Assembly: GCF_018476525.1 (NCBI RefSeq)
Contig: NZ_JAHCST010000007.1
Span: 62,001 to 126,000, forward strand
Direction: 5' to 3'
DNA length: 64,000 nucleotides
From: Acrocarpospora catenulata
Lineage (GTDB): Bacteria; Actinomycetota; Actinomycetes; Streptosporangiales; Streptosporangiaceae
Part shown: positions 37,478 to 54,819 of the stretch, one piece after another
Layout of the letters: each line of letters starts with the position of its first letter
How positions within the stretch are numbered: the first letter of the stretch is position 1
Notes under the pieces: generated by a model
What the model saw: the letters and a program-made list of their open reading frames with translations, nothing else
What the model was told of the DNA's origin: nothing
The model's database searches: none
Translations under genes and position numbers: made by a program

Positions 37478-37537
37478 CTGATGTACTCCTTCGGGGTGGG
37501 CGGCCTCACCGGCCGCCTAGTGGGGGGAGAGTGCCGC

Positions 37538-39836: not shown

Positions 39837-41024
39837 TCAGCCTTCGGTGGCGGCGAGGTAGCCGGCCAGCATCGCCAGGGCCACGTCGGTGACGGTCTCG
39901 TCCGGTGGCAGGAAGTCGGCTCCGTGCAGGCGGACCCGATCGGCGGTGTCGACCCCGACGAACATCATCAGGCCGGGCAGTGCCGTCGACAGGTAGGAGA
40001 AGTCGTCGGCGCCGAAGGAGAGCATCGGCCGGGAGGTGGTCAGCCCCAGCCCGGCCAGTTCGGCGCCCGCCCGCGCGGCCAGCCGGGAGTCGTTGTGCAG
40101 CACGGGCTCACCCCGGGTGATGGTCACCTCGGCGGTGCAGCCGTGCGCGCGGGCGAGCAGGTCGGCGACCTCGGCCAGCTGGGTGTGCACCTGCTTCCTG
40201 GTGGTCTCGTTCATCGCCCGTACGGTCCCGGCCGCCACCGCCTGGTCCGGCACCACGTTGGACGCGCTGCCCGCGCGCAGCGTGGAGACGCCCAGCACGG
40301 CCGAGCTGGTCGGGTCTACGTTCCGGCTGACGATGTGCTGGAGCCCGATGATGACGTGCGCGAGCGCGAGCACGGGATCGCTGGTCAGATGCGGGTAGGC
40401 GGCGTGGCCACCGTGCCCGCGGACGGTGAGGATGAACTCGTCCGCGGCGGCGTTCACGGTGCCGGGGGTGGCGGCCACCTCCCCCCTCGGGAGGGTGGGC
40501 TGCACGTGCGCGCCGATGATCGCGGTCAGCTGGTGCTCGCGCAGCAGCGACGAGGCGGCGATGTCGCGAGCGCCGGAGGGGTAGGTCTCCTCGCGCGGCT
40601 GGAGCACCGCCACCAGCGGTTGCGCGCCCGGAGTGGCGGCGACCGCCCGGCACAGGGCGACCAGCGCGGCCAGGTGCACGTCGTGGCCGCAGGCGTGCAT
40701 GCACCCCACCCGGGTGGAGGCCCACGGGACACCGGTCCGCTCGGTCACGGCCAGCGCGTCCAGCTCGGCGCGTACGCCGACGGCCGGGCCGGGACCGCCG
40801 ATCCGGACCAGCGCGCCGGTCCCCGCCACCAGGTCGGCCGGATGGCCGGAGAGTTCGGCCAGGATCAGGTCCCGGGTCGGGCCCTCGGCTCCCGAGGGGT
40901 CGGGCGCGGCGTGCAGGCGGCGGCGCAGCTCAACCGCCGCGGGCAGCTCGTCCTGCAACGCGCTTTTCAGGCGGTCGGCGAGACCCGTGGCGATGGGGGG
41001 AATGGTGGGGATCGACTCGGTCAC
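39837..41024 (-). CDS. M20-family amidohydrolase, M20D/hippurate-hydrolase type
   Basis: The 395-residue metallohydrolase has the motifs RAELDALAVTE, CMHACGHDVHLAAL (about residues 105-118, metal ligands), PREETYPSGA and FGADDFSYL. The lid dimerisation domain holds RGHGGHAAYPH. The subfamily removes N-acyl groups or hydrolyses amides of amino acids or auxins. I chose GTG 41024, which overlaps the upstream amidohydrolase stop as GTGA; longer in-frame extensions run into that gene. It is the third gene of the minus arm of the catabolic locus. Confidence 0.9.
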   Translation of the reverse strand: MTESIPTIPPIATGLADRLKSALQDELPAAVELRRRLHAAPDPSGAEGPTRDLILAELSGHPADLVAGTGALVRIGGPGPAVGVRAELDALAVTERTGVPWASTRVGCMHACGHDVHLAALVALCRAVAATPGAQPLVAVLQPREETYPSGARDIAASSLLREHQLTAIIGAHVQPTLPRGEVAATPGTVNAAADEFILTVRGHGGHAAYPHLTSDPVLALAHVIIGLQHIVSRNVDPTSSAVLGVSTLRAGSASNVVPDQAVAAGTVRAMNETTRKQVHTQLAEVADLLARAHGCTAEVTITRGEPVLHNDSRLAARAGAELAGLGLTTSRPMLSFGADDFSYLSTALPGLMMFVGVDTADRVRLHGADFLPPDETVTDVALAMLAGYLAATEG

Positions 41025-42154
41025 GGGGCGGGCTCCAGGCCGTAGACGCGCAGCGCGTTGGTGACTCCGATCATGGTAGCGACCCGGATCGCGTCCGATT
41101 CGGTCCACTCGCCGGCGTCCACCCAGCCGCGCAGCGCCCGGGCCAGACCGCGCCGGAACAGGTGCGCGCCGAGGTGGTGCAGCTCGGCGGGCCCCCACGC
41201 GTCGGAAGAGAAGAGGATCTTCGCGAAGGGGGCCAGCTCCAGCGACTCCGCGATCACGGCGTCGGAACGGCTGCCGGTGTAGTTCACGCCGAGCCCGACG
41301 TCGAAATAGACGTGCGGGAACACCTGGGCGAGGTAGCCCGCGTTGCGCTGGTAGGGGTAGCAGTGCAGGAGCAGCACGTCCACGCCGAACGGTTCCACCA
41401 GCTTCAGCCAGCGGGTCAGCAGCAGCGGGTCGCACAGGTGCAGCTCCACGTCCGGATCACCGTAGCCGGTGTGCAACTGGATCGGGAGACCCTGGGCCAC
41501 CCCGGTCCACAGGCCGAAACGGAGCAGGACGGGGTCCTCCACCCGCTGGGTGCCTTCGGCGAGCCAGCGCCCGGCGGCGGCCACCACCTCACGTTCGGCC
41601 GGCGGCTCGGGGGTGAAGGCGAAACCGTACCGGTAGGCGACGATGCTCTTCAGCCCGACCGCGCCCGCGCACCGGGCGGCCAGCTCCGCGCGGAACCGAT
41701 CAGGCAGCTCGGCGGCGCTCACCCCGCCGGCGGCGACCTCCTCCAGGACGCGCTCGATCCGGACGATCTCGTGGGCCGGACGGCCCGAGGCGGCGGCCAT
41801 GCCCGCCACGCCCAGGACCTCATCGCCCCGATAGCCGGTCTCGACCAGGAACCGCCCGATGCCGCTGGCCGCCAGCAGCCGCCGGTTGACCTCGTCCGCG
41901 CCCAGCTCGCCGCGGCGCGCCAGGTAGCCGGCGGGCGAGGCGTGCGCGGGCAGCCCGAGTACGGGGGCGCACCAGCGGCGGATCGCGAAGCCGAGCTGGG
42001 AGTCGAACTGCGTCATGAACGCCGGGATCGGCCGGTCGGACTCGGTGATCAGCGTCTCGAAGGCGGTCCGGTCCAGGGGGACGGTGGCGGCGCCGTGCAC
42101 GTGGTGGTCCACCAGCGGCAGGGCGCCCAGGACCGCTTCCAGGTCAGTAGACAT
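41021..42154 (-). CDS. Amidohydrolase-2 family protein, FluG N-terminal-domain-like
   Basis: The 377-residue TIM-barrel metal-dependent hydrolase has metal ligands in LVDHHVHG (about residues 14-21), IQLHTGYGDPD, VLLLHCYPYQRN and FSSDAWGP. It resembles the nodulin/amidohydrolase half of fungal FluG. It is encoded directly after a glutamine-synthetase-like gene with an 11-bp overlap, so the two halves of FluG are separate proteins here. ATG 42154 fits the domain start. The substrate is unknown; hydrolysis of a C-N bond made or broken in a gamma-glutamyl pathway is an inference. Confidence 0.87.
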   Translation of the reverse strand: MSTDLEAVLGALPLVDHHVHGAATVPLDRTAFETLITESDRPIPAFMTQFDSQLGFAIRRWCAPVLGLPAHASPAGYLARRGELGADEVNRRLLAASGIGRFLVETGYRGDEVLGVAGMAAASGRPAHEIVRIERVLEEVAAGGVSAAELPDRFRAELAARCAGAVGLKSIVAYRYGFAFTPEPPAEREVVAAAGRWLAEGTQRVEDPVLLRFGLWTGVAQGLPIQLHTGYGDPDVELHLCDPLLLTRWLKLVEPFGVDVLLLHCYPYQRNAGYLAQVFPHVYFDVGLGVNYTGSRSDAVIAESLELAPFAKILFSSDAWGPAELHHLGAHLFRRGLARALRGWVDAGEWTESDAIRVATMIGVTNALRVYGLEPAP

Positions 42155-43433
42155 CGACGACCTTACGGCAGAGTTCGGCGGCGGACAGGCCGACCGTCCC
42201 GGCCAGCTCGGCCCGGCGTACGGCGAGGAAAGCGTCCAGCAGCGTGGGCGGCAGCCAGCCGCGGGCGACCGGGTCGCGCTCCAGCGCGGCCAGCGCCGTC
42301 TCCAGCGTGTCGGGCAGCGCGGGTTCGCCCGCCAGGTCGGCCTCGGTGGCGCTCTCCGGCCAGACGTGAGCGCGTTCGCCGCCGGCCAACCCGGCCAGCC
42401 CGGCGCGGACCAGCGTGCCGAGCACCAGCCAGGGATTGGCGGTGGCGTCGGCCGCGCGGTACTCCAGGTGCAGCTGGGCAGCCGGGTCGGCGCCGCCGAT
42501 GTGCACCGTGGGCGCGATCCGGAGCAGCGCCTCCCGGTTGCGCTCGGCCAGGAAGACGCCGCCCGCGCTCCACCGGTGCGGGGTGAGCCGCAGGTAGGAC
42601 ACGGGGTTGGGCGCGGTGACCGCCACCACGGCGGCGGCGTGGCGCAGGATCCCGGCCGCGAACCGCGCCGCGAGGGCGGACAGGCGGCCGGGCGCCCCGG
42701 CGTCGTACATGACCGGGCCGCCGTCGACGGCATGCAGCGAGAAGTGCACATGGACGCCGTTGCCGACGGCCCCGGGGTCGGTGATGGGGGCGAAGGTGGC
42801 GCGTCGCCCACGCCGCCTGGCGAGGTCGCGCACCAGTTCGCGGAGCAGGACCGCGCGGTCGGCGGCGACCAGGGCCGGGGCCGGGCGGAGAGTGATCTCG
42901 AACTGGCCGGGGCCGTACTCGGGCAGCCAGCACTCCGGTTCCAGGCCCGCGTGTTCCAGCAGGGCGACCAGGTCGGTGCCGAACGGCTCGGCCGCGCGCA
43001 GCCGCTGGAAGGAGAACGGGGCTTCGCCGTCCGGCCCGTCGAGCATGAACTCGTGCTCGAAGGACGCGCGCACCTCCAGTCCGGCGCTCTCCCGCAGCTC
43101 CCGCAGGGCCGCCGCCAGGAACGTACGCGGGCAGCCCGGCCATGGCGCGCCGTCCAGGCCGGTCTGGTCGGCCAGGTAGAGCCGGGTGCCGGGCGTCTCG
43201 CCGTCGGCGGGCAGCTCGATCGCGCTGGCCGGATCGGGCAGCAGCCGCAGGTCACCGACGGAGCCGAACGGGCTGCCTCCGGCGAGGTGCCCGAAGCCGG
43301 TCAGCGCCAGGTTGGCGGGCACCCAGCCCACCCCTGTCGCCAGGGTCCGCTCCAGTCGTGCCGCCGGGATCGCCCGGCCGCGTACCTGGGCCGCGAGGTC
43401 ACAGGTCGCCACGAAGACGGTCCCGGTCATCAT
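42144..43433 (-). CDS. Glutamine-synthetase-like gamma-glutamyl ligase
   Basis: The 429-residue protein has GS beta-grasp and catalytic domains. It carries SFEHEFML (Glu ligands), LPEYGPGQFEITL, GVHVHFSLH (about residues 245-253), APNPVSYLRLTPHRWSAG and HLEYRAADATANPWLVL. The sequence is divergent from housekeeping GlnA, as in gamma-glutamylpolyamine synthetases and FluG C-terminal domains. These enzymes attach glutamate or ammonia to carboxylates or amines with ATP. ATG 43433, or the adjacent ATG 43430, follows GGAGG. It leads the minus arm, facing the SDR gene across 181 bp. Confidence 0.88.
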   Translation of the reverse strand: MMTGTVFVATCDLAAQVRGRAIPAARLERTLATGVGWVPANLALTGFGHLAGGSPFGSVGDLRLLPDPASAIELPADGETPGTRLYLADQTGLDGAPWPGCPRTFLAAALRELRESAGLEVRASFEHEFMLDGPDGEAPFSFQRLRAAEPFGTDLVALLEHAGLEPECWLPEYGPGQFEITLRPAPALVAADRAVLLRELVRDLARRRGRRATFAPITDPGAVGNGVHVHFSLHAVDGGPVMYDAGAPGRLSALAARFAAGILRHAAAVVAVTAPNPVSYLRLTPHRWSAGGVFLAERNREALLRIAPTVHIGGADPAAQLHLEYRAADATANPWLVLGTLVRAGLAGLAGGERAHVWPESATEADLAGEPALPDTLETALAALERDPVARGWLPPTLLDAFLAVRRAELAGTVGLSAAELCRKVVDVY

Positions 43434-43481
43434 CGGCTTTCCTCCCGTGCCGGCTCGACGTCCGCGTGCCAGCCGACCTAG

Positions 43482-43530
43482 TGAAACATACGGTTCATAA
43501 CTCCGGTCAAGGTATTGATATGAAATCAAT
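43482..43530. promoter_or_regulatory. Divergent regulatory region with two palindromes
   Basis: ATTGAT-ATGAA-ATCAAT (43514-43530) is a perfect 6-bp inverted repeat. A second near-palindrome, TGAAAC-ATACG-GTTCA, lies at 43482-43497. They sit between the divergent GS-like and SDR genes, the natural control point of the catabolic locus. The RpiR protein at 53911-54819 is the likely ligand-responsive factor. Confidence 0.45.
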
Positions 43531-43614
43531 CCTGCGTGTAGCCTGCCAGACCTGGCGAAATAACCCCAGGTCAGACGGTTGGCGTCAAATCCGACTTAGG
43601 CAGGGAGGTAATTC

Positions 43615-44367
43615 ATGGCGAACGCCGACGGCCGGTTGGCCGGCGCGGTGACCCTGGTCACCGGTGGCGCCCAGGGCATCGGCCGAGGCGTCGCCGCGGC
43701 CTTCCGGGACGCCGGCTCCACGGTGGTGGTCGCGGACCTCGACGAGGCCCGCGCCGACCTGCCCGGGGTGGACCGGGTGCGCATGGACGTGCGCGATCCG
43801 GCGTCGGTGGCGGGCGCGACCGAACAGGTCGTGGCACGGCACGGCGGCCTGGACATCCTGGTCGCCAGTGCGGGCGTCTACCCGAACACGCCCGTGCTGG
43901 AGATGGACCCGGCCGAGTGGGACGAGGTGTTCGCGGTGAACACCCGCGGGGTCATGCTGGCCGCGCGGGCGTTCGCCCGGGCCCCGGGCGCCTCCGGGGC
44001 CGAGCGCCGGATCATCGCGATCTCCTCCGGGGCGGGCCGGTCGGCGCGGGTGGGGGCCGCGCACTACTGCGCCTCGAAAGCGGCCCTGGACATGCTGGTG
44101 AAGGTGCTGGCCCTGGAGCTGGCGCCGGCGCGGACCACGGTCAACGCGGTCGCGCCCGGCCTGATCGAGGTCCCGGCCACCGCCGCGCTGGCCCCGGAAT
44201 ACGTCACAGCCCTGGTCGCCGGGCAGCCGGTGCAGCGGATGGGCACGCCCGCCGAGGTCGCGCGGGCCTGCCTGTTCCTGGCCGATCCGGATTCCTCGTT
44301 CATCACGGGGAGCGTGCTCGACGTGGACGGAGGCTTCCTGGCCGGCACACCGCTACCGCCGAGCTGA
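43615..44367 (+). CDS. Short-chain dehydrogenase/reductase (SDR)
   Basis: The 250-residue classical SDR has NAD(P) site TGGAQGIGRG (about residues 17-26), an Asp after beta-2 (VADLDEA) that favours NAD, the active Tyr-Lys in HYCASKAAL, and a C-terminal GSVLDVDGGFLAG. ATG 43615 follows GGGAGG. It is the first gene of the plus arm, 192 bp before the solute-binding protein gene. It probably oxidises a hydroxyl of the imported compound or its product. Confidence 0.88.
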   Translation: MANADGRLAGAVTLVTGGAQGIGRGVAAAFRDAGSTVVVADLDEARADLPGVDRVRMDVRDPASVAGATEQVVARHGGLDILVASAGVYPNTPVLEMDPAEWDEVFAVNTRGVMLAARAFARAPGASGAERRIIAISSGAGRSARVGAAHYCASKAALDMLVKVLALELAPARTTVNAVAPGLIEVPATAALAPEYVTALVAGQPVQRMGTPAEVARACLFLADPDSSFITGSVLDVDGGFLAGTPLPPS

Positions 44368-44559
44368 GCCGCCTCATCGTTAGTAACAAATACTTAATGC
44401 GTCTGTTCTTCCACATCAGATGCAACGTACATTTCAATTTGCTCGGAGTAGTGGAATGGTGCAAATCGGACAGTTGATCGTTCCGTGCGCGGCCTGGCCC
44501 CTCCTCGATCCGACCGGCCTCCGATCAACCCAGCCCTGATCACGCAGAGAGGTTCCCCC
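44368..44559 (+). promoter_or_regulatory. Region upstream of the transporter operon with an ATTTGC/GCAAAT inverted repeat
   Basis: Just after the SDR stop the sequence becomes AT-rich. ATTTGC (44437-44442) and GCAAAT (44461-44466) form an inverted repeat with an 18-bp spacer. A TTTCAATTT stretch shares the TGAAA core with the 43.5-kb palindrome. A second promoter for the importer operon is likely here; no clear -10/-35 was identified. Confidence 0.35.
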
Positions 44560-45858
44560 ATGGACCGTCCTTCCTTCCTTCGCTCCCGGCCACCCGTCGT
44601 CGCCGCCCTGCTGGCCGCCGTCACCACGCTGGCCGCCTGTTCCTCCGGCGCCACCACCGAGGCGGGCGACGGCCAGGTCGCCGCGGACCCCGCCGGCAAG
44701 GAGATCCAGATCGGCCTGCTGGCCCCGCTGACCGGCGGCTCCGCCTCCGACGGCAAGGGCATGCTGCAGGGCGCCGAACTGGCCATCAAGCAGCTCAACG
44801 AGCGCGGCGGCGTCGCCGGCCACACCTTCAAGCTGAAGAGCGTGGACGTCCAGGGCCAGTCCAACGACGCGGTCACCAAGGGCGTGCAGACCCTGATCGA
44901 CGACCCGGAGATCAAGGCCGTGATCACCGGCTACGCCTCCACCTCCAACTTCGAGATCGACGAGTTCGCCGCGGCCGAGAAGGTCTACCTGATCGGCGGC
45001 AACACCGCGCAGACCCAGGCGATCATCGAGAAGGACCCCGCCAAGTACCCCACCGTCTGGTCGATCACCCCCAACTACGACGCGTACGGGGTGGAACCGG
45101 TCACCCTGGCCCTGAAATGGGCCGACCAGGGGCTGTGGAAGCCGCGCTCCAAGAGCGTCTTCCTGGTCCGCTCCGACAACCCCTACAGCGAGGGCATCGC
45201 CGACGGCCTGGCCAAGGAGTTCCAGAGCAAGGGGTGGAAGGTCGCCGGGCAGGAGAAGGTACCGTTCGGCGCGGTCAACGACTGGGGCACCGTGATCAGC
45301 AAGATCCGCTCCGCCGACCCCGACTTCATCGTCAACACCGACTACCAGGTCGCCAATGAGGCGAGCTTCATGCAGCAGTTCCTGCAGAACCCCACCAAGT
45401 CGCTGGTCTTCATGCAGTACGGCCCCAACCAGCCGCAGTTCTTCGAGCTGACCAAGCAGAAGGCCGAAGGGGTGCTGTTCAACAACCTGGCGGGCCTGGT
45501 GCCCTCGGCCGGCTACGCGCCCGCCGCCCAGCTCCAGAAGGACTGGCAGGCCGCGTACGGCACCAGCGAGGTGGACCCGCAGGGCGTGCTCACCTACGTC
45601 GAGATGATGATCTACGCCGAGGCGCTGCGCCAGGTCGGCGACCCCGACGACGCCAAGGCGATCGGCACCGCGATCGGCGCCAGTGACACCGAGCAGGCCT
45701 CCGGCCGGATCGCCTTCGACCCGGCCACCCACCTGGCCAGGCAGGGCGACGACTACGTACCGCTCCAGTCCTTCCAGTTCCAGGACGAGAAGAAGGTCCT
45801 GATCGCTCCGGAGAAGTACGCCTCCGGCACCTTCCGGCTGCCGCCCTGGATGAGCTGA
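44560..45858 (+). CDS. Lipoprotein substrate-binding protein of a branched-chain-amino-acid-type ABC importer
   Basis: The 432-residue type I periplasmic-binding fold (LivK/Peripla_BP_6) protein has an N-terminal signal with the lipobox LAAC at Cys27, so it is anchored outside the membrane. The core begins EIQIGLLAPLTGGSASDGKG. I chose ATG 44560, after AGAGAGG, because it gives a clean signal peptide; the upstream start at 44485 adds a non-signal leader. It defines the substrate for the LivGFHM set encoded at 49.1-52.4 kb. The ligand is unknown; amides and amino-acid derivatives are common in this class. Confidence 0.93.
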   Translation: MDRPSFLRSRPPVVAALLAAVTTLAACSSGATTEAGDGQVAADPAGKEIQIGLLAPLTGGSASDGKGMLQGAELAIKQLNERGGVAGHTFKLKSVDVQGQSNDAVTKGVQTLIDDPEIKAVITGYASTSNFEIDEFAAAEKVYLIGGNTAQTQAIIEKDPAKYPTVWSITPNYDAYGVEPVTLALKWADQGLWKPRSKSVFLVRSDNPYSEGIADGLAKEFQSKGWKVAGQEKVPFGAVNDWGTVISKIRSADPDFIVNTDYQVANEASFMQQFLQNPTKSLVFMQYGPNQPQFFELTKQKAEGVLFNNLAGLVPSAGYAPAAQLQKDWQAAYGTSEVDPQGVLTYVEMMIYAEALRQVGDPDDAKAIGTAIGASDTEQASGRIAFDPATHLARQGDDYVPLQSFQFQDEKKVLIAPEKYASGTFRLPPWMS

Positions 45859-45868
45859 GAGGAACACC

Positions 45869-46714
45869 GTGCCGGACAACCTTCTGACGCTGCCGCCCGG
45901 CAAGCGCATGGCGGTCGCGCTGACCTTCGACTTCGACGCGCACTCCCCGTGGATGGGCACGGTGGGCCGTACCTCGCCCACCTACCTGTCCCGGGGGGAC
46001 TTCGGCGCCGAGCAGGGCGTGCCGCGCCTGCTGGAGTTGCTGGGCCGCAACAACCTGCCGGCCACCTGGGCCACCCCCGGCCACGACCTGGTGACCTTTC
46101 CGCACCGGATCGAGCAGATCCTGAACGCAGGCCACGAGATCGCCGCGCACGGCTGCTACCACGAGGTGGTGCCGAGCCTCGGTCCTGCGGAGGAGCGGCG
46201 GCTGATGGAGGTGGCGCTCGGCCAGCACGAGCGCGTCGTCGGCCGCCGCCCGCGCGGCTACCGCTCCCCCGCCTGGGACTTCTCCGAGACCACGCTGGAC
46301 CTGCTGGAGGAGTACGGCTTCGACTGGGACAGCTCGCTGATGGGCCGGGAGTTCGAGCTGTACCGGCCGCGCCGGGTCACCGTCAACTACGAGTCGGCCA
46401 ACGAGTTCGGCCCGGAAAGCCGGATCATCGAGATCCCGGTCTCCTGGTACCTGGACGACTGGCCCTCGGTGGAGTACGTCGCGGGCATCTCGGCGCTCGG
46501 GCCGCACCGCGACATGGAGGACCGCTGGCACACGATCTTCGAGTACGCCCACGAACGGGTGCCGGGCGCGGTCTACGTGCTCACCATGCATCCGCAGACC
46601 ATCGGCCGCTCCCACCACCTGCTGGTGCTGGAGAAGCTGATCGAGCGCATGCTGGAGACGGGCACCGTCTGGTTCGCGACCCTCAGCGAGATCGCCGATG
46701 CCTGGCGTGGGTGA
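45869..46714 (+). CDS. NodB-fold polysaccharide-deacetylase-family hydrolase
   Basis: The 281-residue protein has a NodB catalytic domain with the Asp-Asp motif TFDFDAHSPW (about residues 18-27) and metal His in AAHGCYHEVV. RSPAWDFSETTLDLL is the motif 3 region and TMHPQTIGR is near the end. This lineage includes cyclic-imide and allantoin hydrolases (PuuE-like) as well as true deacetylases. It lacks a signal peptide, so it acts inside the cell and a small amide or cyclic imide substrate is more likely than a polysaccharide. GTG 45869 follows AGAGGAA, 10 bp after the binding-protein stop. Confidence 0.85.
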   Translation: MPDNLLTLPPGKRMAVALTFDFDAHSPWMGTVGRTSPTYLSRGDFGAEQGVPRLLELLGRNNLPATWATPGHDLVTFPHRIEQILNAGHEIAAHGCYHEVVPSLGPAEERRLMEVALGQHERVVGRRPRGYRSPAWDFSETTLDLLEEYGFDWDSSLMGREFELYRPRRVTVNYESANEFGPESRIIEIPVSWYLDDWPSVEYVAGISALGPHRDMEDRWHTIFEYAHERVPGAVYVLTMHPQTIGRSHHLLVLEKLIERMLETGTVWFATLSEIADAWRG

Positions 46715-48314
46715 AGCCACCGGCGGGATGGTCACGGCGCCCGATCCACGGGCGGCGCACGCCGGAGCGCTGATGTTGCGCGCGGGCGGCAGCGCCGTGG
46801 ACGCCGCCGTGGCCACCGCCTTCGCGATCGGCGTGGTCGAGCCGTACATGAGCGGCCTCGGCGGCGGCGCCTGGCTGGTGATCCGCCGGCCGGGGGCCAG
46901 GAGCGCGACCACCGTGTCCGGGCCGATCCGGGCCCCCGGCCTGGCCAGGCCGGACATGTTCCGGCTCGCGCCCGGCGCGGACCCGACCGGCCTGTACGGC
47001 TGGCCCGCGGTGGCCGGCGACGCCAACATCCTCGGCCCACTGTCGGTCGGGACGCCCGGCGCGGTCGCCGCGCTCTGCCGGGCCCACGCCCGCTTCGGCC
47101 TGCTCCCGCTGGCCGAGGTGCTGGCCCCGGCGATCGAACTGGCCGAGGAAGGCCACCAGACCAACTGGTTCGCCTCGTCGGCGATCTGCGGCGAAGCCCG
47201 GAACCTCCGCAGATTCCCAGAAAGCGCGGCCCTGTTCCTCCCCGGCGGGCTGCCCTTGCGCGGCCCGTCGCAGGGACCGGGCGACCGGCTGGTGCAACCC
47301 CGCCTGGCCGCCGTCCTGCGTGAGATCGCCGACGGCGGCGCCGAGCGGTTCTACCGGGGCCGGGCCGGTCGGGCCGTCGCCGCCTTCGTCGAAGCGCGGG
47401 GCGGCACCCTGCGCGCCGACGACCTGGCCACCTGCGAGGCCACCGAGACCGAGATCGATCCGGTCGAGATCGGCCCGCTGAGCCTGTACGGCCCGCCGGC
47501 CACCGGCGTGGTGACGGCCGCCGAGGCGTTGCAGATCGTCGAGGCCGCCGGACGACGCGGCCTGGACCCGGGCCCCCGGCTGTGGGCCCGCGCCCTGGCC
47601 CGCGCCTTCGACGACCGGCTGCGCGAGGTCAGCACGGAGAACTCCGGCTGGGAGCGGCTGGCCGGGGCCGAACACGCCGAGCGGGTCGTCGCGGAGTGGG
47701 ACCGTCCCCTGCCGGTGACCGGGGGACCGGCCAGGGCCGGGTGCACCTCCCACCTGTCGGCCGTGGACGGGCGCGGCATGACGGTCGCGCTCACCCAGAC
47801 GGTGCTCGACCTGTTCGGCTCGCGTCTGGTCGAACCGGAGACCGGCATCGTGCTCAACGACGGGATGATGTACTTCGACCCGCGCCCCGGCCAGGTGACC
47901 AGCATCTCCCCCGGCGCGGCGGGGCTCAGCGCGGTCTGCCCCGTCATCGTCGGCGGCCCCGGCGGCGAGGCCGTGCTCGGCGCGTCCGGCGGCCGGCGGA
48001 TCATCTCCGCCGTCGCCCAGATCATCGCCCGCTGGCGGGACGGCGCCACCCTCCAGGCCGCCGTCGAGGCCCCCCGGCTGCACGCCGAGGGACGCACGGT
48101 CTGGCTGGACCGCCGCCGGGAGAGCGCCGCCGCGGACCTGACCGCGGCGGGACACGACGTCCAGGTGGTCGAGGAGGAGCCGACCACCTGGCACTTCGCC
48201 CGCCCGGGCGGCGTCGAACGCCGCCCGGGGCGTGGCTGGGCGCCCGGGGTGGACCGGATGAAGCCCCACGGCGTGGGCGTCCAGGACAGCACACCGTCAC
48301 TCGCAGCGCACTGA
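46698..48314 (+). CDS. Gamma-glutamyltransferase family protein
   Basis: The 538-residue Ntn-hydrolase of the GGT family has the N-terminal GSAVDAAVATAFAIGVVEP and SGLGGGAWLV (about residues 31-60), and the nucleophile region GCTSHLSAVDGRG (Thr start of the mature beta chain). C-terminal motifs are LNDGMMYFDPRPG and LGASGGRRI. GGT breaks gamma-glutamyl bonds or transfers the glutamyl group. It lacks a visible signal peptide, so it is probably cytoplasmic, unlike classical GGT. It overlaps the NodB gene by 17 bp. With a GS-like ligase across the divergent region, a gamma-glutamylated intermediate is plausible. Confidence 0.92.
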   Translation: MPGVGEATGGMVTAPDPRAAHAGALMLRAGGSAVDAAVATAFAIGVVEPYMSGLGGGAWLVIRRPGARSATTVSGPIRAPGLARPDMFRLAPGADPTGLYGWPAVAGDANILGPLSVGTPGAVAALCRAHARFGLLPLAEVLAPAIELAEEGHQTNWFASSAICGEARNLRRFPESAALFLPGGLPLRGPSQGPGDRLVQPRLAAVLREIADGGAERFYRGRAGRAVAAFVEARGGTLRADDLATCEATETEIDPVEIGPLSLYGPPATGVVTAAEALQIVEAAGRRGLDPGPRLWARALARAFDDRLREVSTENSGWERLAGAEHAERVVAEWDRPLPVTGGPARAGCTSHLSAVDGRGMTVALTQTVLDLFGSRLVEPETGIVLNDGMMYFDPRPGQVTSISPGAAGLSAVCPVIVGGPGGEAVLGASGGRRIISAVAQIIARWRDGATLQAAVEAPRLHAEGRTVWLDRRRESAAADLTAAGHDVQVVEEEPTTWHFARPGGVERRPGRGWAPGVDRMKPHGVGVQDSTPSLAAH

Positions 48315-48326
48315 GGAGAGATCGCG

Positions 48327-49138
<812 letters not shown>

Positions 49139-49142
<4 letters not shown>

Positions 49143-49873
49143 CCGTACTGCTGGCCGCCGAGCAGGTCACCAAGTCCTTCGGCAGCCTCCGCGCCGTGGA
49201 CGGGGTGTCCATCGAGGTACGGCAGGGCGAGGTCTTCGGCCTGGCCGGTCCCAACGGCGCGGGCAAGAGCACGCTGTTCAACCTGTTGACCGGCATCCCG
49301 ATCCGGCCCGACTCCGGCCGGGTGCTCCTGCGCGGCCGGGAGGTCCAGCACCGCTCCCCCCGCTGGATCGCCAAGGCCGGGCTGAAGCGCACCTTCCAGA
49401 CCGAGGCCGTCTTCGAGTCCCTCACCGTCCTGGAGAACGTCCGGATCGGCTCCGCGTACGGCGGGGCGGGCCGGGCCGCCCGGTGGAACCGGGCCAGCTG
49501 CGCCGAGGCGCTGGAGCAGGTGGAGCTGGGCGGCGACCCCGGCCGCCCGGCCGACGAGCTGTCGCTGATCGACCGCAAGCGCCTGATGATCGCCTGCGCC
49601 CTGGTCAGCCGCCCGTCCGTGCTCCTGCTGGACGAGCCGGCCGCCGGGCTGGACCCCGCCGACCAGGACGCCCTGATCCGCCTGCTGACCCGGATCCACG
49701 CCACCGGCACGACGATGGTGATCATCGAACACGTGCTGTCCGTGCTGGAGGCGCTCGCCGACCGGATGTCCGTACTGGACAGCGGCCGGGTGATCGTCAC
49801 CGGCGCCCCCGCCGACGTGCTCACCGACGCCCGCGTGGTCGAGGCCTACCTGGGACCGGGAGCGGCACGATGA
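49139..49873 (+). CDS. ABC transporter ATP-binding protein, LivG type
   Basis: The 244-residue ATPase has Walker A GPNGAGKST and Walker B LLLDEPAAGLDP. The LivG-family LKRTFQTEAVFESLTVLENV stretch lies between them. The signature motif is altered: DELSLIDRKRLMIA replaces the usual LSGGQ-type sequence, as in many LivG relatives. The ATG at 49139 overlaps the SDR stop. It powers the branched-chain-amino-acid-type importer. Confidence 0.93.
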
Positions 49874-50601
49874 ACGACCTGCTGACAGTAGACGGTCTCA
49901 CCGCGGGCTACGGCCATACAAAGGTGCTGCGCGGGATCTCGCTGCGCGTCGGCGCGGCCGAGGCGATCGGGCTGCTCGGCCCCAACGGGCACGGCAAGAC
50001 CACACTGCTGCGCTGCGTGTCCAACCTGCACCGGGCCACCTCCGGCTCCATCACCTACGCGGGCAGTGACACCCGGGGCCGCTCCCCGCGCGACCTGGTC
50101 CGCCGCGGCCTCATCCACGTCCCCCAGGGCTCCCGGCTGTTCCCGCAGCTCACCGTGGAGGAGGCGCTGCGCATGTCGGCCGCCTCCAGCGGCCACACCG
50201 CGACCTGGCGGGACGGCCTGGACCACGTCTTCACCGTCTTCCCCCGCCTGGGCGAACGCCGAGGCCAGCTCACCGGCACGCTGAGCGGCGGCGAACGCCA
50301 GATGGTCAGCCTCGGGATGGGCCTGATGGCCCGGCCCACCCTGCTCATCCTCGATGAGCCCACCCTCGGCCTGTCGCCCAAGGTCAAGCACGAGCTGAGC
50401 GAGTGCATCCTGCGGATCCGCACCGAGGTCTCCTCGATCATCCTGGTGGACGGTGACATGGACCTGGTGCTCAGCCTCACCGACCGCTACCACGTCGTGC
50501 TGCACGGCGACATCGTGCACAGCGGCGCCTCCGACACGACCGTCGGCCGCGACGCGATGATGTCGCTCTTCCTGGGAGGGTCCACCGATGAGCGGCATTA
50601 G
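49870..50601 (+). CDS. ABC transporter ATP-binding protein, LivF type
   Basis: The 243-residue ATPase has Walker A GPNGHGKTT (His where Ala is usual), HVPQGSRLFPQLTVEE typical of LivF, signature TLSGGERQMV and Walker B LLILDEPTLGLSP. It overlaps livG by 4 bp and livH by 14 bp. It pairs with LivG as the two motor subunits. The switch loop reads ILVDGDMDLVLSL, where the common form has EQ before N; this is worth noting but not proof of inactivity. Confidence 0.92.
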   Translation: MNDLLTVDGLTAGYGHTKVLRGISLRVGAAEAIGLLGPNGHGKTTLLRCVSNLHRATSGSITYAGSDTRGRSPRDLVRRGLIHVPQGSRLFPQLTVEEALRMSAASSGHTATWRDGLDHVFTVFPRLGERRGQLTGTLSGGERQMVSLGMGLMARPTLLILDEPTLGLSPKVKHELSECILRIRTEVSSIILVDGDMDLVLSLTDRYHVVLHGDIVHSGASDTTVGRDAMMSLFLGGSTDERH

Positions 50602-51463
50602 CGCCATCCTGACCAGCGCCCTCGTCCTGGGCGGGCTCTACCTGCTCATGGCGGCCGGGCTCACCCTGATCTGGTCCACCCTGCGGGTGTTCAACTTCGG
50701 GCACGGCGCGCTGCTGATGTTCGGGGCGTACCTGTCCTGGACGCTCCTGGACCGCGCCGGGCTGCCGCTGCTCCCCGCCCTGGTCGGCGGCGTGCTGGCG
50801 CTGGCCCTGCTCGGCGTGGTCTACGAGTTCCTGCTGGTCAGCCCGTTCATCCGGCGGCCCAACGGGGACATGCTGGTGATGGTGGCCACGCTGGCCGCCA
50901 CCATGCTGTTGCAGTCCGGCGCGCTGCTGCTGTGGGGGCCGGAGATCAAGCAGCTCCCGCCGCTCGGCTCGGCCAGGATCGAGCTGGGCGGCTCGGTCGT
51001 CCAGGGCACCCAGCTGGTCACCATCATCCTGGCGCCGGTGCTGGTCGGCCTGCTGGCCCTGGCACTCAAACGCACCGGCATCGGGCTGACCGTGCGGGCG
51101 CTGGAACAGAACCGCGAGCACGCCCAGCTCCTGGGCATCTCGCCGCGCCGGGTCTACCTGTTCGTGGTGACCGTCGCGATCGCGCTGGCGGCGGTGGCCG
51201 GGGTGCTGCTGGGCAGCATGCGGTTCATCTCGCCGACGATGGGCGACGATCCGCTGCTGCGCGCCTTCGTCGTGCTCGCCTTCGGCGGCGCCGGCAGCCT
51301 CGGCGGCACCATCGCCGGCGCGTACGCCATCGGCCTGCTCGAAGCGGTGACCACGTACTACTTCGGGCTGTCGTGGAGCCCGGTCCTGGTCTTCCTGGCC
51401 ATGATCGTCATCATGCTGGCCCGCCCCGAGGGTCTGCTGCGCAGCCAGGTGAGGAGCGCGTGA
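50588..51463 (+). CDS. ABC transporter permease, LivH type
   Basis: The 291-residue membrane permease has about eight hydrophobic segments. LivH-family features are LMAAGLTLIWSTLRVFNFGHGALLMFGAYL at the N-terminus (residues 19-48), ALEQNREHAQLLGIS (the cytoplasmic coupling loop) and FGGAGSLGGTIAGAYAIGL near the C-terminus. It overlaps livF by 14 bp and livM by 1 bp. It forms the channel with LivM. Confidence 0.93.
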   Translation: MSGISAILTSALVLGGLYLLMAAGLTLIWSTLRVFNFGHGALLMFGAYLSWTLLDRAGLPLLPALVGGVLALALLGVVYEFLLVSPFIRRPNGDMLVMVATLAATMLLQSGALLLWGPEIKQLPPLGSARIELGGSVVQGTQLVTIILAPVLVGLLALALKRTGIGLTVRALEQNREHAQLLGISPRRVYLFVVTVAIALAAVAGVLLGSMRFISPTMGDDPLLRAFVVLAFGGAGSLGGTIAGAYAIGLLEAVTTYYFGLSWSPVLVFLAMIVIMLARPEGLLRSQVRSA

Positions 51464-52419
51464 TGGCGAACCTGCGCACCTGGGCCGGGTGGCCCGCATA
51501 CGCGATCGTGCTGGCCGTGCTCCCGCTGGTCCTCACCGACCCGCACAGCCGCCTGCTGCTGATCCTGATCACCATGTACGGCATGCTCGCGCTGAGCTGG
51601 AACCTCACCCTCGGCTTCGCGGGCATCTTCAACTTCGCCCAGATCGGCTTCTTCGGGATCGGCGCCTACACGGCCGGCATCCTGGCCACCCAGACCGGGA
51701 TCGACCCGTGGCTGACCCTGCCGATCTCCGCGGTGTCGGCGGTACTGGCCTCGCTGGTGGCCTTCCTGCCGGTGCTGCGGCTGCGCGGCATCTACGTCGG
51801 CCTGGCCACCTACGTCTTCTCCCAGCTCTGCATCTACCTGGTGCTCGGCCAGGCGGGCCTGACCGGCGGCGCAGGCGGCATCGTCGGCATTCCCCGGCTG
51901 ACCCTCGGGGAGACCAGCCTGCGGGCCGACGGCCGGATCGGCTACTACTTCCTGGGCGCGGCGCTGCTGTTCGCCACCACCCTGCTGGTCCGCCTGATCA
52001 GCCGTTCCACGCTCGGCCTGTCCCTGCTGGCGATCCGCGACAACGAGGCCCTGGCCACCAGCCGGGGCGTCTCCCGGGTACGGCAGCACCTGATCATCTT
52101 CATGATCGGCGCGGCGCTGGCCGGAGTGGCGGGCGCCTTCAACACCTACCTCAACGGCGTGGTCAGCACCGACGTGTTCGGCTTCGGCTACCTGACCCTG
52201 CTGCTCAGCATGATCTTCCTGGGCGGCAGCGGCAGCGTGTACGGCCCGATCGCGGGCGCCGTCGTGGTCACCCTGGTCACCGACGCGCTCCAGGACGCCG
52301 GGGCGTGGCGCGACGTGACGGTCGCGCTGCTCATCCTGGTGGTCCTCTGGATCGCCCCGAAAGGCCTGGCCGGGCTCGCCCGCCGAGCCATCGCCCCTCG
52401 TGTAAAGGAGAACGCATGA
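51463..52419 (+). CDS. ABC transporter permease, LivM type
   Basis: The 318-residue membrane permease has LivM features: LALSWNLTLGFAGIFNFAQ (about residues 41-59), IRDNEALATSRGVSRVRQHL as coupling loop, and FLGGSGSVYGPIAGAVVVT near the end. I chose ATG 51463, overlapping the livH stop. The 3' end overlaps the M20 gene as ATGA. With SBP, LivG, LivF and LivH it completes a full importer. Confidence 0.93.
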   Translation: MANLRTWAGWPAYAIVLAVLPLVLTDPHSRLLLILITMYGMLALSWNLTLGFAGIFNFAQIGFFGIGAYTAGILATQTGIDPWLTLPISAVSAVLASLVAFLPVLRLRGIYVGLATYVFSQLCIYLVLGQAGLTGGAGGIVGIPRLTLGETSLRADGRIGYYFLGAALLFATTLLVRLISRSTLGLSLLAIRDNEALATSRGVSRVRQHLIIFMIGAALAGVAGAFNTYLNGVVSTDVFGFGYLTLLLSMIFLGGSGSVYGPIAGAVVVTLVTDALQDAGAWRDVTVALLILVVLWIAPKGLAGLARRAIAPRVKENA

Positions 52420-53738
52420 CCAGCCAGGACGCCCTGACGACCAGGATCCTCGACGAGGTGGACGGCCTGGCGGCCAGGATGGTGCACACCCTCGCCGAGG
52501 CCATCGCCGTGCCCAGCATCAACCCCCGCTACCCCGGCCAGGAGTACGACAAGGTCGTCGGCGCCGAGGGCGAGATGAGCGCACTCCTCGCCGACCTGTA
52601 CGCCGAGGCGGGCGCCGACCTCACCACGGTGACCGTGGAACGCGGCCGGGACAATGTGGTCGGCGTCCTGCCCGGCGCGGGCGGCGGGCGCTCACTGCTG
52701 TTGAACGGGCACGTGGACGTGGTGCCGCCCGGGCGGCTGGACCGCTGGCACGGCGACCCCTTCCGGGCGGTGGTCACCGACGACACGGTCACCGGCCGCG
52801 GCGCCACCGACATGAAGGCCGGTCTGGTCGCCGCCGCGTACGCCGCCGTCGCGCTGCGCCGCGCGGGCCTGCGCCTGGCGGGTGACCTGGTGCTGCAGGC
52901 GGTCGTCGGCGAAGAGGTGGGCGACCACGAGGCCGGCACCACGGCAGTGCTGGAGGCCGGTTTCGGCGCGGACGCGGCCATCGTGTGCGAACCGTCCGGT
53001 CAGCGTGGCACGCTGCCCGCGGTGGTGCCGGTCACGCCCGGCCTGTTGTGGTTCTCCATCACCATGGAGGGCAAGACCGCACATTCCGGGCTGCGAGGCA
53101 TGACCGTGCACCCGACCCTGGAGGGGGACGCCCTGGGCGTCAACACGGTGGACAAGTTCTGGATCGTCTACCAGGCCCTGCGCGCGCTGGAGGAGGAGTG
53201 GGCCGGGCACGACCGGCACCCGCTCTTCCCGCCCGGCTACTTCAACCTGCTGCCCGGCGTGCTGCGCGCCAATCCGTCCGGGATCCTGGTGCCGTTCTTC
53301 CTGGCCGACGAGCTGACCGTGGAGTACTGCGTCTACCATCACCCCGGCCGTACCAACGAGGAGGTGATGGCCGAGATCGAGACCCGGGTCGCCGACGCCT
53401 GCCGCCGCGACCCGTGGCTGCGCGCGCATCCCCCGGTGTTCGAGTGGAAACTGCTCTGGCCGCCGTACGCGCTGCCCGACGACGCGCCGATCGCCGCCAC
53501 CGTCGCGCACGCACACGCCACCGCCGCCGGACAGGTCCCGCTGACCAGCGGCTTCATGGGCGTGTGCGATCTGACCTGGATGGACCGCAAGGACATCGGC
53601 GGCCTGGTGTACGGCCCGGGAGTGGGCTACACCGCGCACGCCGAGAACGAGTACGTCGAGATCGCCCAGCTCGTCCAGTCGGCCAAGACCTACGCGCTGA
53701 CCGCGGTCAGCTGGTGCGGCCTGGCGGAGGCCGGATGA
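52416..53738 (+). CDS. M20-family peptidase/deacylase, ArgE/DapE type
   Basis: The 440-residue cytoplasmic metallohydrolase has metal-ligand motifs LLLNGHVDVVPPG (about residues 93-105), GRGATDMKAGL and VVGEEVGDHEAGT, and a lid domain starting ITMEGKTAHSGLRG. The family cleaves N-acyl or peptide-like amide bonds of amino acids. It is the last gene of the tightly overlapping importer operon, 172 bp before the RpiR gene. It is the second M20 enzyme of the locus and belongs to a different subfamily from the one at 39.8 kb. Confidence 0.9.
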   Translation: MTSQDALTTRILDEVDGLAARMVHTLAEAIAVPSINPRYPGQEYDKVVGAEGEMSALLADLYAEAGADLTTVTVERGRDNVVGVLPGAGGGRSLLLNGHVDVVPPGRLDRWHGDPFRAVVTDDTVTGRGATDMKAGLVAAAYAAVALRRAGLRLAGDLVLQAVVGEEVGDHEAGTTAVLEAGFGADAAIVCEPSGQRGTLPAVVPVTPGLLWFSITMEGKTAHSGLRGMTVHPTLEGDALGVNTVDKFWIVYQALRALEEEWAGHDRHPLFPPGYFNLLPGVLRANPSGILVPFFLADELTVEYCVYHHPGRTNEEVMAEIETRVADACRRDPWLRAHPPVFEWKLLWPPYALPDDAPIAATVAHAHATAAGQVPLTSGFMGVCDLTWMDRKDIGGLVYGPGVGYTAHAENEYVEIAQLVQSAKTYALTAVSWCGLAEAG

Positions 53739-53910
53739 CCACGACCTGTCCCCCCGGGCTGAATCAGGCCCCGGAGGTTTTCCGCACCGGCCTTCCGCGG
53801 GAGGTTCGCGCCGTCCACCCATCCGTGCGAGTATCCCTGATGCGACCGGCCGGAGCCGGCTCCCCCCGAGCTGGTCTGCCGCGATGACCGGTCACGCTGA
53901 AGGAGACGGC

Positions 53911-54819
53911 ATGCCCGGCACGACCGAGCCGCGTACGGTGGCGGCCCAGCTGCGCGACGTGCTTCCCAGCCTTCCCCGGGCCGAGCAGCGGGTGGCCCGC
54001 GCACTGCTGGCCGGCTACCCCACGGCGGGGCTGGAGCCACTGGCCACCGTGGCCACCCTGGCCCAGTCCAGCCCGGCCACCGTGCTCCGGCTGGCCTACC
54101 GCCTGGGTTTCCAGGGCTACCCGGAACTCCAGCAGGCGCTCAAACGCGAAACCCAGCAGCGCTACTCCTCCCCGCTCATCCAGTACGCCGAACCCACCGC
54201 CGAAGAGGGCACGGGTCAAGACGACGACGGGGTACTCGGCCGCTCCCGGCGCGTCCTGCTGGAAGCCACCGCGATGACCTTCGACCAGCTCCCCGAAGGC
54301 GAACTCGTCAAAGCGGCCGGGCTGCTGGCCGATTCCGCCCGGCGCGTGTCGGCCGCAGGCGGCCGATTCAGCACAATCCTGGCGCACTACCTCATCGCCC
54401 ACCTCCACCAGCTCCGCCCGAACGCCACCTACATCGCGGGCTCCACCGCCGACCACGCCGCCCACCTGCTCGACATGGGCCGCCGCGACGTCCTGGTCCT
54501 CTTCGACTACCGCCGCTACCAACGCGAAACCATCGCCTTCGCCCGCGCGGCAGCCGCCCGCAACGTAAAGATCGTCCTCTTCACCGACCCCTGGCTCTCC
54601 CCTGCCGCGGCAGTAGCCGACGTCGTCCTCCCCGGCCAGGTCCGTTCCCCCTCCCCCTTCGACTCCCTCACCCCCGCCGTAGCACTCATCGAAACCCTGG
54701 TCGCCGCCGTAGTCGAACAACTCGGCGAAACCGGCCGTGCCCGCGTCGCCAAGTACGACCAAATGGCCGACGACGTACTCCGCGAGGAAGACACCACCTC
54801 CCAACCCGCCACCCCGTAA
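53911..54819 (+). CDS. RpiR-family transcriptional regulator
   Basis: The 302-residue protein has an N-terminal RpiR HTH (about residues 1-80, with LEPLATVATLAQSSPATVLRL and GFQGYPELQQALKRE). A C-terminal SIS sugar-isomerase-like domain (about 130-290) is FSTILAHYL through LVLFDYRRYQRETIAFARAA, with PSPFDSLTPAVALIETL near the end. ATG 53911 follows AAGGAG at 5 bp; an in-frame ATG at 53884 is the alternative. It closes the catabolic locus and is its probable regulator, acting at the palindromes near 43.5 kb. The ligand is unknown. Confidence 0.92.
   Translation: MPGTTEPRTVAAQLRDVLPSLPRAEQRVARALLAGYPTAGLEPLATVATLAQSSPATVLRLAYRLGFQGYPELQQALKRETQQRYSSPLIQYAEPTAEEGTGQDDDGVLGRSRRVLLEATAMTFDQLPEGELVKAAGLLADSARRVSAAGGRFSTILAHYLIAHLHQLRPNATYIAGSTADHAAHLLDMGRRDVLVLFDYRRYQRETIAFARAAAARNVKIVLFTDPWLSPAAAVADVVLPGQVRSPSPFDSLTPAVALIETLVAAVVEQLGETGRARVAKYDQMADDVLREEDTTSQPATP

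What the first reader, a model, noticed from the sequence alone, without database searches (positions are those of the whole stretch)
39837..54819. Divergent catabolic locus built around a split FluG, with its own importer
A glutamine-synthetase-like ligase and an amidohydrolase overlap by 11 bp and correspond to the two halves of fungal FluG. They share an operon with an M20D amidohydrolase. Across a short divergent region lies a complete Liv-type importer with two SDRs, an intracellular NodB-fold hydrolase, a signal-less gamma-glutamyltransferase, a second M20 enzyme and an RpiR regulator. The parts suggest uptake of an amide or amine compound, gamma-glutamylation, oxidation and stepwise deacylation. 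I do not know a described pathway with this gene set.
Basis: partly seen in the sequence, partly recalled or inferred. Interest (0 to 1): 0.75.

Follow-up and report, generated by a model that had tools for sequence, protein, structure and literature searches.

The report
Actinomycete gamma-glutamylation amine catabolism locus
A 14-gene block in a soil actinomycete appears to import a nitrogen compound, tag its amine with glutamate, process it and remove the tag; each piece resembles known enzymes, but the combination and the substrate are undescribed as far as my searches went.

Summary
Fourteen genes (39837-54819) are present as described, in the same order in relatives from three other genera. 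The two arms form one unit: the importer's binding protein was found only beside the GS arm (5 of 5 among 200 order genomes), and both arms carry a similar palindromic operator (43482, 44421) that has one other match in the 10.3 Mb genome.

The GS-like enzyme lost both ammonia residues, so it is probably a gamma-glutamyl-amine ligase. The "gamma-glutamyltransferase" keeps its nucleophile but lost the residues that hold the gamma-glutamyl group; another amide hydrolase is likelier. M20D and an EgtC-like amidotransferase exclude each other next to GS and AH (22 against 13 of 44, 9 neither), suggesting M20D as deglutamylase. SDR1, NodB, GGT-like and SDR2 form an optional cassette, lost as a set in relatives.

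The split FluG pair itself is known in Streptomyces coelicolor (SCO6961/6962). New here are the composition, operator, exchange and modules. The substrate stays unknown.

The parts
39837..41024 (-). M20D-family metal-dependent amidohydrolase; proposed gamma-glutamyl-amide hydrolase (deglutamylase)
   Evidence: TIGR01891 243 bits over cut-off 153.75; exchanges with EgtC-like GATase next to GS/AH, 22 vs 13 of 44, 0 both, 9 neither
41021..42154 (-). Amidohydrolase (AH), homologue of the FluG N-terminal half; metal residues H18, H20, K169, H228, H264, D318 kept
42144..43433 (-). GS-like gamma-glutamyl-amine ligase, homologue of the FluG C-terminal half; ammonia residues replaced (A40, W288)
   Evidence: 4hpp (PA5508) E 5e-106; alignment to own-genome GlnA; W288 in 11 of 11 aligned sequences, the window's included
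43482..43497 (.). Palindromic operator TGAAACATACGGTTCA in the divergent region
43615..44367 (+). SDR1 oxidoreductase (cassette gene)
   Evidence: Pfam PF13561; catalytic S and YxxxK present
44421..44436 (.). Second operator copy TGCAACGTACATTTCA upstream of the SBP gene
   Evidence: an intergenic site before SBP in 6 of 7 block relatives (L053-L056, L114, L129; not listed as intergenic for L052)
44560..45858 (+). Substrate-binding lipoprotein of a Liv/HAAT-type importer
   Evidence: Pfam PF13458; nearest solved 3h5l
45869..46714 (+). NodB-fold intracellular hydrolase, HP0310/PuuE-like (cassette gene)
   Evidence: Pfam PF01522; 3qbu E 2e-49
46698..48314 (+). GGT-fold Ntn hydrolase with the gamma-glutamyl site lost (cassette gene)
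   Evidence: Pfam PF01019; residue mapping; TIGR00066 below cut-off
48327..49142 (+). SDR2 oxidoreductase (cassette gene)
   Evidence: Pfam PF13561
49139..49873 (+). ABC importer ATPase 1
   Evidence: sequence and position; orthologues; no family scan run
49870..50601 (+). ABC importer ATPase 2
   Evidence: sequence and position; orthologues; no family scan run
50588..51463 (+). ABC importer permease 1
   Evidence: sequence and position; orthologues; no family scan run
51463..52419 (+). ABC importer permease 2 (start 51460 or 51463)
   Evidence: sequence and position; orthologues; no family scan run
52416..53738 (+). M20 ArgE/DapE-family deacylase
   Evidence: TIGR01910 225.7 bits over cut-off 217.6
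53911..54819 (+). RpiR-family regulator with SIS domain
   Evidence: PF01418 and PF01380

Best explanation
A single RpiR-controlled catabolic locus for an acylated or ring-closed amine. The Liv-type importer takes the compound up. An optional front-end cassette (NodB-type ring or amide hydrolase, GGT-fold Ntn amide hydrolase, two SDRs) opens amide bonds and oxidises a hydroxyl. The M20 deacylase frees the primary amine. The GS-like enzyme caps that amine as a gamma-glutamyl amide using ATP. AH acts on the capped intermediate or its product, and M20D cleaves the gamma-glutamyl amide to give glutamate back. Shown by sequence and comparison: the unit, its shared operator, the lost ammonia site of GS, the lost gamma-glutamyl site of the GGT-like enzyme, the cassette behaviour, and the M20D/GATase exchange. 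Inferred: the order of steps, the role of AH, M20D as deglutamylase, RpiR as the protein that binds the operator, and the substrate class.
For: All 14 genes collinear in three other genera. SBP only beside the GS arm in 5 of 5; AH adjacent to GS in 14 of 14 genomes found by GS. Operator at both arms, 2 of 3 genome-wide places at <=1 mismatch, and 11 intergenic / 0 genic sites in 37 GS loci outside the window's clade. GS: Asp to A40 and Glu to W288, W288 in 11 of 11 aligned sequences. GGT residue losses. M20D or GATase-II, never both, in 44 GS loci, three changes at the fewest on the AH tree; the five GATases looked at keep Cys2. A Sinorhizobium relative of the core carries an FGase instead, the family predicted as gamma-glutamylglycine amidohydrolase in S. 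coelicolor (PMC6529630, PMC9397018, passages). Cassette missing as a set in L054 and L070 and in G191, which keeps a 54-residue SDR1 remnant.
Against: 11 of 36 AH loci without a counted GS still carry M20D; one of these (L057) has a GS fragment, so ten stand, and there M20D and AH work where no gamma-glutamylation gene is near. 9 of 44 GS loci have neither deglutamylase in range, six of them with at least 6 kb read on both sides. Three changes are few, were counted on one tree, and the Fisher p (1.9e-5) ignores relatedness. 26 of 44 GS loci lack the operator pattern, 13 of them with an RpiR in range. HP0310, the nearest solved NodB relative, was inactive on acetylated polyamines, acetylated dipeptides and allantoin (PMC3084791 section 9), so the ring-opening role of NodB has no direct support. 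The SBP model (pLDDT 70) matches Liv, amide, urea, GABA and aromatic-acid binders. No aldehyde dehydrogenase or amine oxidase is in the block.
Confidence: 0.48

Rival explanations
1. AH, not M20D, is the deglutamylase (as predicted for SCO6961), and both M20 enzymes deacylate the imported compound.
For: SCO6961 is induced by polyamines like glnA3 and was predicted as the hydrolase step of that pathway (PMC5403932 passages); AH is next to GS in 14 of 14 genomes found by GS; M20D occurs with AH but no GS in ten loci.
Against: Loci without M20D carry a GATase-II whose best NCBIfam match is EgtC (52-53 bits, cut-off 218.65; that EgtC cleaves a gamma-glutamyl amide is recalled) while AH stays (those loci were selected by AH, so this is partly by construction). 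The Sinorhizobium core has an FGase and no AH in the 25 kb read.
Confidence: 0.25
2. A plain polyamine or monoamine utilisation locus of the known Puu/GlnA3 kind; the cassette and M20 only widen the range, for example to acetylated polyamines.
For: GS is nearest to PA5508/PauA7 among solved structures; other clusters carry APC permeases and class III or ornithine-type aminotransferases; HP0310 relatives neighbour polyamine importers (PMC3084791).
Against: No PuuB-type oxidase or PuuC dehydrogenase in the block; the importer is Liv-type; HP0310 itself was inactive on acetylated polyamines.
Confidence: 0.2
3. AH is a sugar-acid isomerase-like enzyme and the substrate is a sugar-linked amine sensed by the SIS domain of RpiR.
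Against: AH keeps K169, the lysine that is carbamylated and bridges two zinc ions in 2qpx (PMC6478659), a hydrolase feature; a shared fold shows no function.
Confidence: 0.07
4. A FluG-like signal-making or self-modification locus rather than catabolism.
For: Fungal FluG is developmental, and bacterial homologues of both halves can replace it with altered characteristics (PMC6478659 abstract and passages).
Against: Dedicated importer, five hydrolases, patchy distribution (SBP in 5 of 200), repeated loss of parts.
Confidence: 0.05

Closest known systems
Streptomyces coelicolor glnA3-SCO6961-SCO6960 (SCO6962 is GlnA3)
   Same: GS-like gamma-glutamylpolyamine ligase with a downstream Amidohydro_2 gene, likely co-transcribed and induced by polyamines: the same split FluG pair (PMC5403932, PMC6478659, passages)
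   Different: The passages seen name no Liv importer, M20D, M20, RpiR, NodB, GGT-like or SDR gene beside it; substrate known (polyamines). SCO6961/6962 sequences were not compared here
S. coelicolor GlnA4 ethanolamine cluster (SCO1611-1615)
   Same: Amine capped with glutamate, then predicted oxidation and cap removal (PMC6529630, PMC9397018, passages)
   Different: Cap removal predicted for a PF05013 FGase; aldehyde dehydrogenase present; no AH named
Aniline/1-naphthylamine pathways (AtdA, NpaA; GoaS class)
   Same: GS-like ligase plus an amidotransferase-like hydrolase of the gamma-glutamyl amide (PMC11335346, passages)
   Different: Rieske dioxygenase step; no AH, M20D or Liv importer named in the passages
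Aspergillus nidulans FluG
   Same: Both halves match the same solved relatives (2qpx, 4hpp); metal residues of the N-terminal half kept (PMC6478659)
   Different: Fused and developmental in the fungus; separate overlapping genes here
HP0310 / PuuE allantoinase (NodB-fold small-molecule hydrolases)
   Same: Metal and catalytic Asp/His positions kept (against PMC3084791), no signal peptide by eye
   Different: PuuE equivalog cut-off not reached (59 of 424.6 bits); linked here to SDRs and an Ntn hydrolase. HP0310 itself is inactive on allantoin

Membership tests
Glutamine synthetase (glutamate-ammonia ligase) | ammonia-site residues D50 and E327 (Salmonella numbering, recalled) | tested here: not met
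   A40 and W288 against own-genome GlnA L001; W288 in 11 of 11 aligned sequences
Glutamine synthetase (glutamate-ammonia ligase) | ATP, glutamate and metal residues (recalled) | tested here: met
   E126, E128, E172, E179, H228, R282, R300, R305, E324 aligned with GlnA
Gamma-glutamyl organic amine ligase (GoaS: PauA7, GlnA3) | closest homology to such a ligase, and lost ammonia site | tested here: met
   PA5508/4hpp E 4.9e-106, next best 3.3e-35
Gamma-glutamyl organic amine ligase (GoaS: PauA7, GlnA3) | amine glutamylation activity | not testable with these tools
   needs an assay; gamma-glutamylputrescine synthetase cut-off 650 not reached (231.5 bits)
Gamma-glutamyltransferase | autoprocessing Thr nucleophile | tested here: met
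   T350 aligned with position 391 of E. coli GGT (alanine in that mutant chain, Thr in wild type is recalled); small-subunit chains start at query residue 350
Gamma-glutamyltransferase | residues binding the gamma-glutamyl group (R114, D433 and others, recalled) | tested here: not met
   P76, L370, G389, Y392, A412, invariant in the four orthologues aligned
Gamma-glutamyltransferase | TIGR00066 curated score | tested here: not met
   221.4 bits, cut-off 357.85
FluG | N- and C-terminal halves with catalytic residues | tested here: met
   no direct comparison with a FluG sequence was run
FluG | one fused polypeptide | tested here: not met
   separate genes overlapping by 11 bp
PuuE allantoinase | equivalog score | tested here: not met
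   TIGR03212 59 bits, cut-off 424.6
Secreted polysaccharide deacetylase | secretion signal | tested here: not met
   N-terminus without a hydrophobic segment, by eye; no predictor run
Puu-type polyamine pathway | PuuB oxidase and PuuC dehydrogenase in the locus | tested here: not met
   absent from the ten scanned proteins, the other four being ABC core proteins; rest of the genome not tested
Liv/HAAT importer | SBP, two permeases, two ATPases | tested here: met
   SBP by Pfam; the four others by sequence, position and orthologues
Liv/HAAT importer for amino acids | amino-acid ligand | tested here: inconclusive
   model pLDDT 70; matches span several ligand classes
Uronate isomerase | fold and active site | tested here: inconclusive

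The most novel reading that the evidence does not exclude
An undescribed pathway in which a cyclic amide or imide is imported, opened by a NodB-fold hydrolase and a GGT-fold Ntn hydrolase that has abandoned gamma-glutamyl chemistry, and the freed amine is then protected by gamma-glutamylation. The split FluG pair would here be the central tag-and-process enzymes, with an M20D enzyme as a third, independently recruited kind of deglutamylase beside GATase-II and FGase. Working it out would give a substrate for the FluG amidohydrolase half.
Probability: 0.33. Interest if true: 0.7.

Novelty: new variant of a known kind. Interest (0 to 1): 0.52.

Why it matters
The amidohydrolase half of FluG, and its solved bacterial relative, had no known activity in the 2019 FluG paper (PMC6478659, passages). 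This locus, with its own importer, operator, regulator and natural loss variants, gives a bacterial system in which that substrate can be sought genetically. It also offers a testable case that M20D enzymes can serve as deglutamylases and that GGT-fold enzymes annotated as gamma-glutamyltransferases can do other amide chemistry.

Tried and rejected
True gamma-glutamyltransferase: rejected on lost binding residues. Glutamine synthetase: rejected on the lost ammonia site. Cassette as a chance insertion: rejected, since it is present in the window and 6 relatives, and its four genes, which lie on both sides of the retained SBP gene, are missing together in L054 and G191, with an SDR1 remnant in G191. 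Consensus promoter/terminator scan: nothing found; uninformative here. SBP model and Foldseek: no ligand signal. Literature searches for an equal gene set: none recognised in the listings (open-access PMC library only). Searches for imidase/NodB and HpxW-type GGT gave no direct functional anchor beyond HP0310 and PuuE; the HpxW link is recalled only. RpiR operator search gave no usable consensus.

Negative or mixed controls: NodB homologues are common at E<=0.001 (167 of 200 order genomes), so NodB alone is no marker; the GGT-like protein at E<=1e-60 was in 2 of 296 class genomes, the window's own included. In 26 paralogous NodB loci (about 3.8 kb each), 18 hold an SDR match and 14 one of three hydrolase types; the hydrolase queries came from three of those same loci, which match by construction, and the other 12 were not tested for other hydrolases. 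In plasmid records the NodB homologue sat near an amidase or nitrilase-type gene in 3 of the 4 regions opened (not in 21). The window operator pattern was derived from the window site itself, so one search is no independent test; one search is. On confidence: after re-reading, the HP0310 result on allantoin and the 13 RpiR-bearing loci without the operator were added as evidence against, and I lowered the best explanation from 0.50 to 0.48 and the novel case from 0.35 to 0.33.
Full report
What is there. The window lies in a 10.3 Mb actinomycete genome. Its AH protein is 94% identical to that of Acrocarpospora macrocephala, Streptosporangiaceae. On the minus strand GS-like (42144-43433), AH (41021-42154) and M20D (39837-41024) overlap end to start. 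On the plus strand, after a 181-bp gap, follow SDR1, SBP, NodB, GGT-like, SDR2, two ATPases, two permeases, M20 and RpiR. Pfam and NCBIfam were run on ten of the fourteen proteins; Pfam matches all ten, NCBIfam has no model for AH. The four ABC core proteins were read from sequence and orthologues. Metal or catalytic motifs are present in AH, NodB, M20D, M20, GS and both SDRs (motif meanings recalled, those of AH and NodB checked against PMC6478659 and PMC3084791 passages).

It is one unit. L052, L056 and L129 show all 12 genes that fit in the fetched flank. In searches of 200 order genomes the SBP orthologue (E<=1e-40, all at 79% or more) occurs in 5, always beside GS. GS at E<=1e-75 occurs in 14, always beside AH; 9 of those 14 lack this SBP. 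NodB at 90% or more occurs in 4, all inside the block. Two sampled congeners (G063, G145) have no SBP or GS match at those limits, so the block is patchy.

Shared operator. Alignment of the divergent region in eight loci showed a conserved TGAAACATNYGRTKCA near-palindrome. A second copy lies before the SBP gene (44421). One search gives four strand matches, that is two sites, in the window at up to two mismatches, against a mean of 0.17 in shuffles, but the pattern came from that site. In the whole genome the pattern with at most one mismatch hits these two sites and one other place; the control pattern read backwards has 2 matches. The looser form TGMAACNNNNGTTKCA at <=1 mismatch gives 24 intergenic and 3 genic sites in 44 GS loci (18 loci with a site). 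In the 37 loci outside the window's clade it gives 11 and 0, and in 36 loci without a counted GS 1 and 4. None of 59 permuted palindromes reached 11 on those 37 (mean 0.7, maximum 9). All 11 independent loci also carry an RpiR. 26 of 44 GS loci have no such site, 13 of them with an RpiR in range. That RpiR binds it is inferred.

GS-like and GGT-like enzymes. Against GlnA of the same genome (L001) the GS-like enzyme has A40 and W288 where GlnA has the Asp and Glu of the ammonia site. W288 holds in 11 of 11 aligned sequences, including a Sinorhizobium and a Deinococcus one. The closest solved relative is PA5508, a gamma-glutamyl amine ligase (PMC11335346, PMC6529630 passages). The GGT-like protein keeps T350 at the nucleophile position but has P76, L370, G389, Y392 and A412 in place of E. 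coli R114, N411, Q430, D433 and S463 (roles of these residues recalled). All of these are invariant in the four orthologues aligned. It scores 221 bits against a cut-off of 358 for gamma-glutamyltransferase.

Core, cassette and slots. One genome-contig scan with the AH alignment gave 80 loci (81 relatives found, best 80 kept). Among the 44 with GS near AH, 22 carry M20D, 13 an EgtC-like class II GATase, none both, nine neither (Fisher p 1.9e-5 without correction for relatedness). With at least 6 kb on both sides the figures are 20, 10, 0 and 6 of 36. On the AH tree of 73 rows, 35 GS-bearing rows (the window's included) need three changes between the two states (one tree, not checked on bootstrap trees). 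Five GATases looked at keep Cys2. The Liv SBP occurs in 8 and the APC permease in 26 of the 44, never together, ten with neither. Streptomyces and Saccharopolyspora cores hold RpiR, APC permease, GS, AH and M20D, some with an ornithine-type aminotransferase. NodB and GGT occur together in 6 of 80 loci plus the window. They and both SDRs are absent from L054, which lies inside the block's clade (support 97/82), and from L070. G191 also lacks them but keeps a 54-residue SDR1 tail at 87%. G111 lost the importer and cassette except an SDR1 piece, keeping most of M20 and RpiR. L054 has no SDR1 remnant. As whole genes, the four are all present or all absent in these eleven loci (window, L052-L056, L070, L114, L129, G191, G111).

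Beyond actinomycetes. A Sinorhizobium plasmid carries RpiR, GS, M20, SBP, two ATPases and two permeases in one run at 31-50% identity. This run is divergent from an FGase, two isochorismatase-type amidases, a second Liv importer and a class III aminotransferase. The 25 kb read hold no AH or M20D match. FGase is the family predicted to remove glutamate in the ethanolamine pathway (PMC6529630, PMC9397018 passages). A Deinococcus plasmid has GS and AH adjacent, without the rest.

The NodB cassette elsewhere. HP0310, the nearest solved NodB relative, is described as an intracellular type likely to bind a small molecule, and was inactive on GlcNAc, chitotriose, acetylated polyamines, acetylated dipeptides and allantoin (PMC3084791 passages and section 9). 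In 26 paralogous NodB loci, 18 hold an SDR match, 8 an M20D, 5 a C45 Ntn hydrolase and 1 an Amidohydro_1 enzyme (only these hydrolases were sought, and three loci supplied the queries). The window's cassette looks like one more version with a GGT-fold Ntn hydrolase in that slot.

Mechanism and limits. I read the locus as import, amide opening and oxidation, deacylation, gamma-glutamylation, AH step, deglutamylation. The sequence work shows the unit, the shared sites, the lost residues and the exchanges. The order, the role of AH and the substrate are inference. Against the M20D assignment stand ten loci where M20D sits with AH but no GS (an eleventh, L057, has a GS fragment). AH loci were chosen by AH, so AH retention in them proves nothing; the 14 of 14 count comes from the GS-seeded search.

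Known versus new. The bacterial split FluG pair is in print: S. coelicolor SCO6961/6962 (PMC5403932, PMC6478659 passages), as is the nearness of GSI and amidohydrolase genes in bacterial clusters (PMC6478659 passage). I recognised no paper with this gene set in the listings (open-access library only).

Noticed in passing
L074, L075, L077, L079, L088, L090 and similar Nonomuraea loci: AH, in ten such loci with M20D but without GS, in several of them near a NAGPA/metallophosphatase protein and a GH2 beta-galactosidase-like protein; role unknown.
   Followed up: partly
L018, L019, L022, L024, L025 and L013, L014, L016, L017, L020, L021, L023, L029: Recurring NodB+SDR modules: one with a C45 Ntn hydrolase and a ProP-like MFS transporter, one with an M20D enzyme (PucR-type regulator seen in L013, L046 and L047).
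   Followed up: partly
L136 1446-17993: Sinorhizobium sp. RAC02 plasmid region with two Liv importers around RpiR, GS-like, M20, FGase, isochorismatase-type and aminotransferase genes; no gene is listed there in the plasmid table.
   Followed up: partly
L041: Paenarthrobacter sp. YJN-D plasmid: NodB homologue next to a nitrilase-type hydrolase and near an ABC binding protein.
   Followed up: no
L057 9682-10011: GS gene of Saccharopolyspora shandongensis was called as only about 110 residues beside AH and M20D; may be broken.
   Followed up: no
window 36383-39237: PTS EIIC, PfkB kinase and DeoR regulator: a separate sugar operon next to the block.
   Followed up: no
G000:C1:280461-281540: A second AH homologue (44%) elsewhere in the genome, read with one TGA inside the match.
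   Followed up: no
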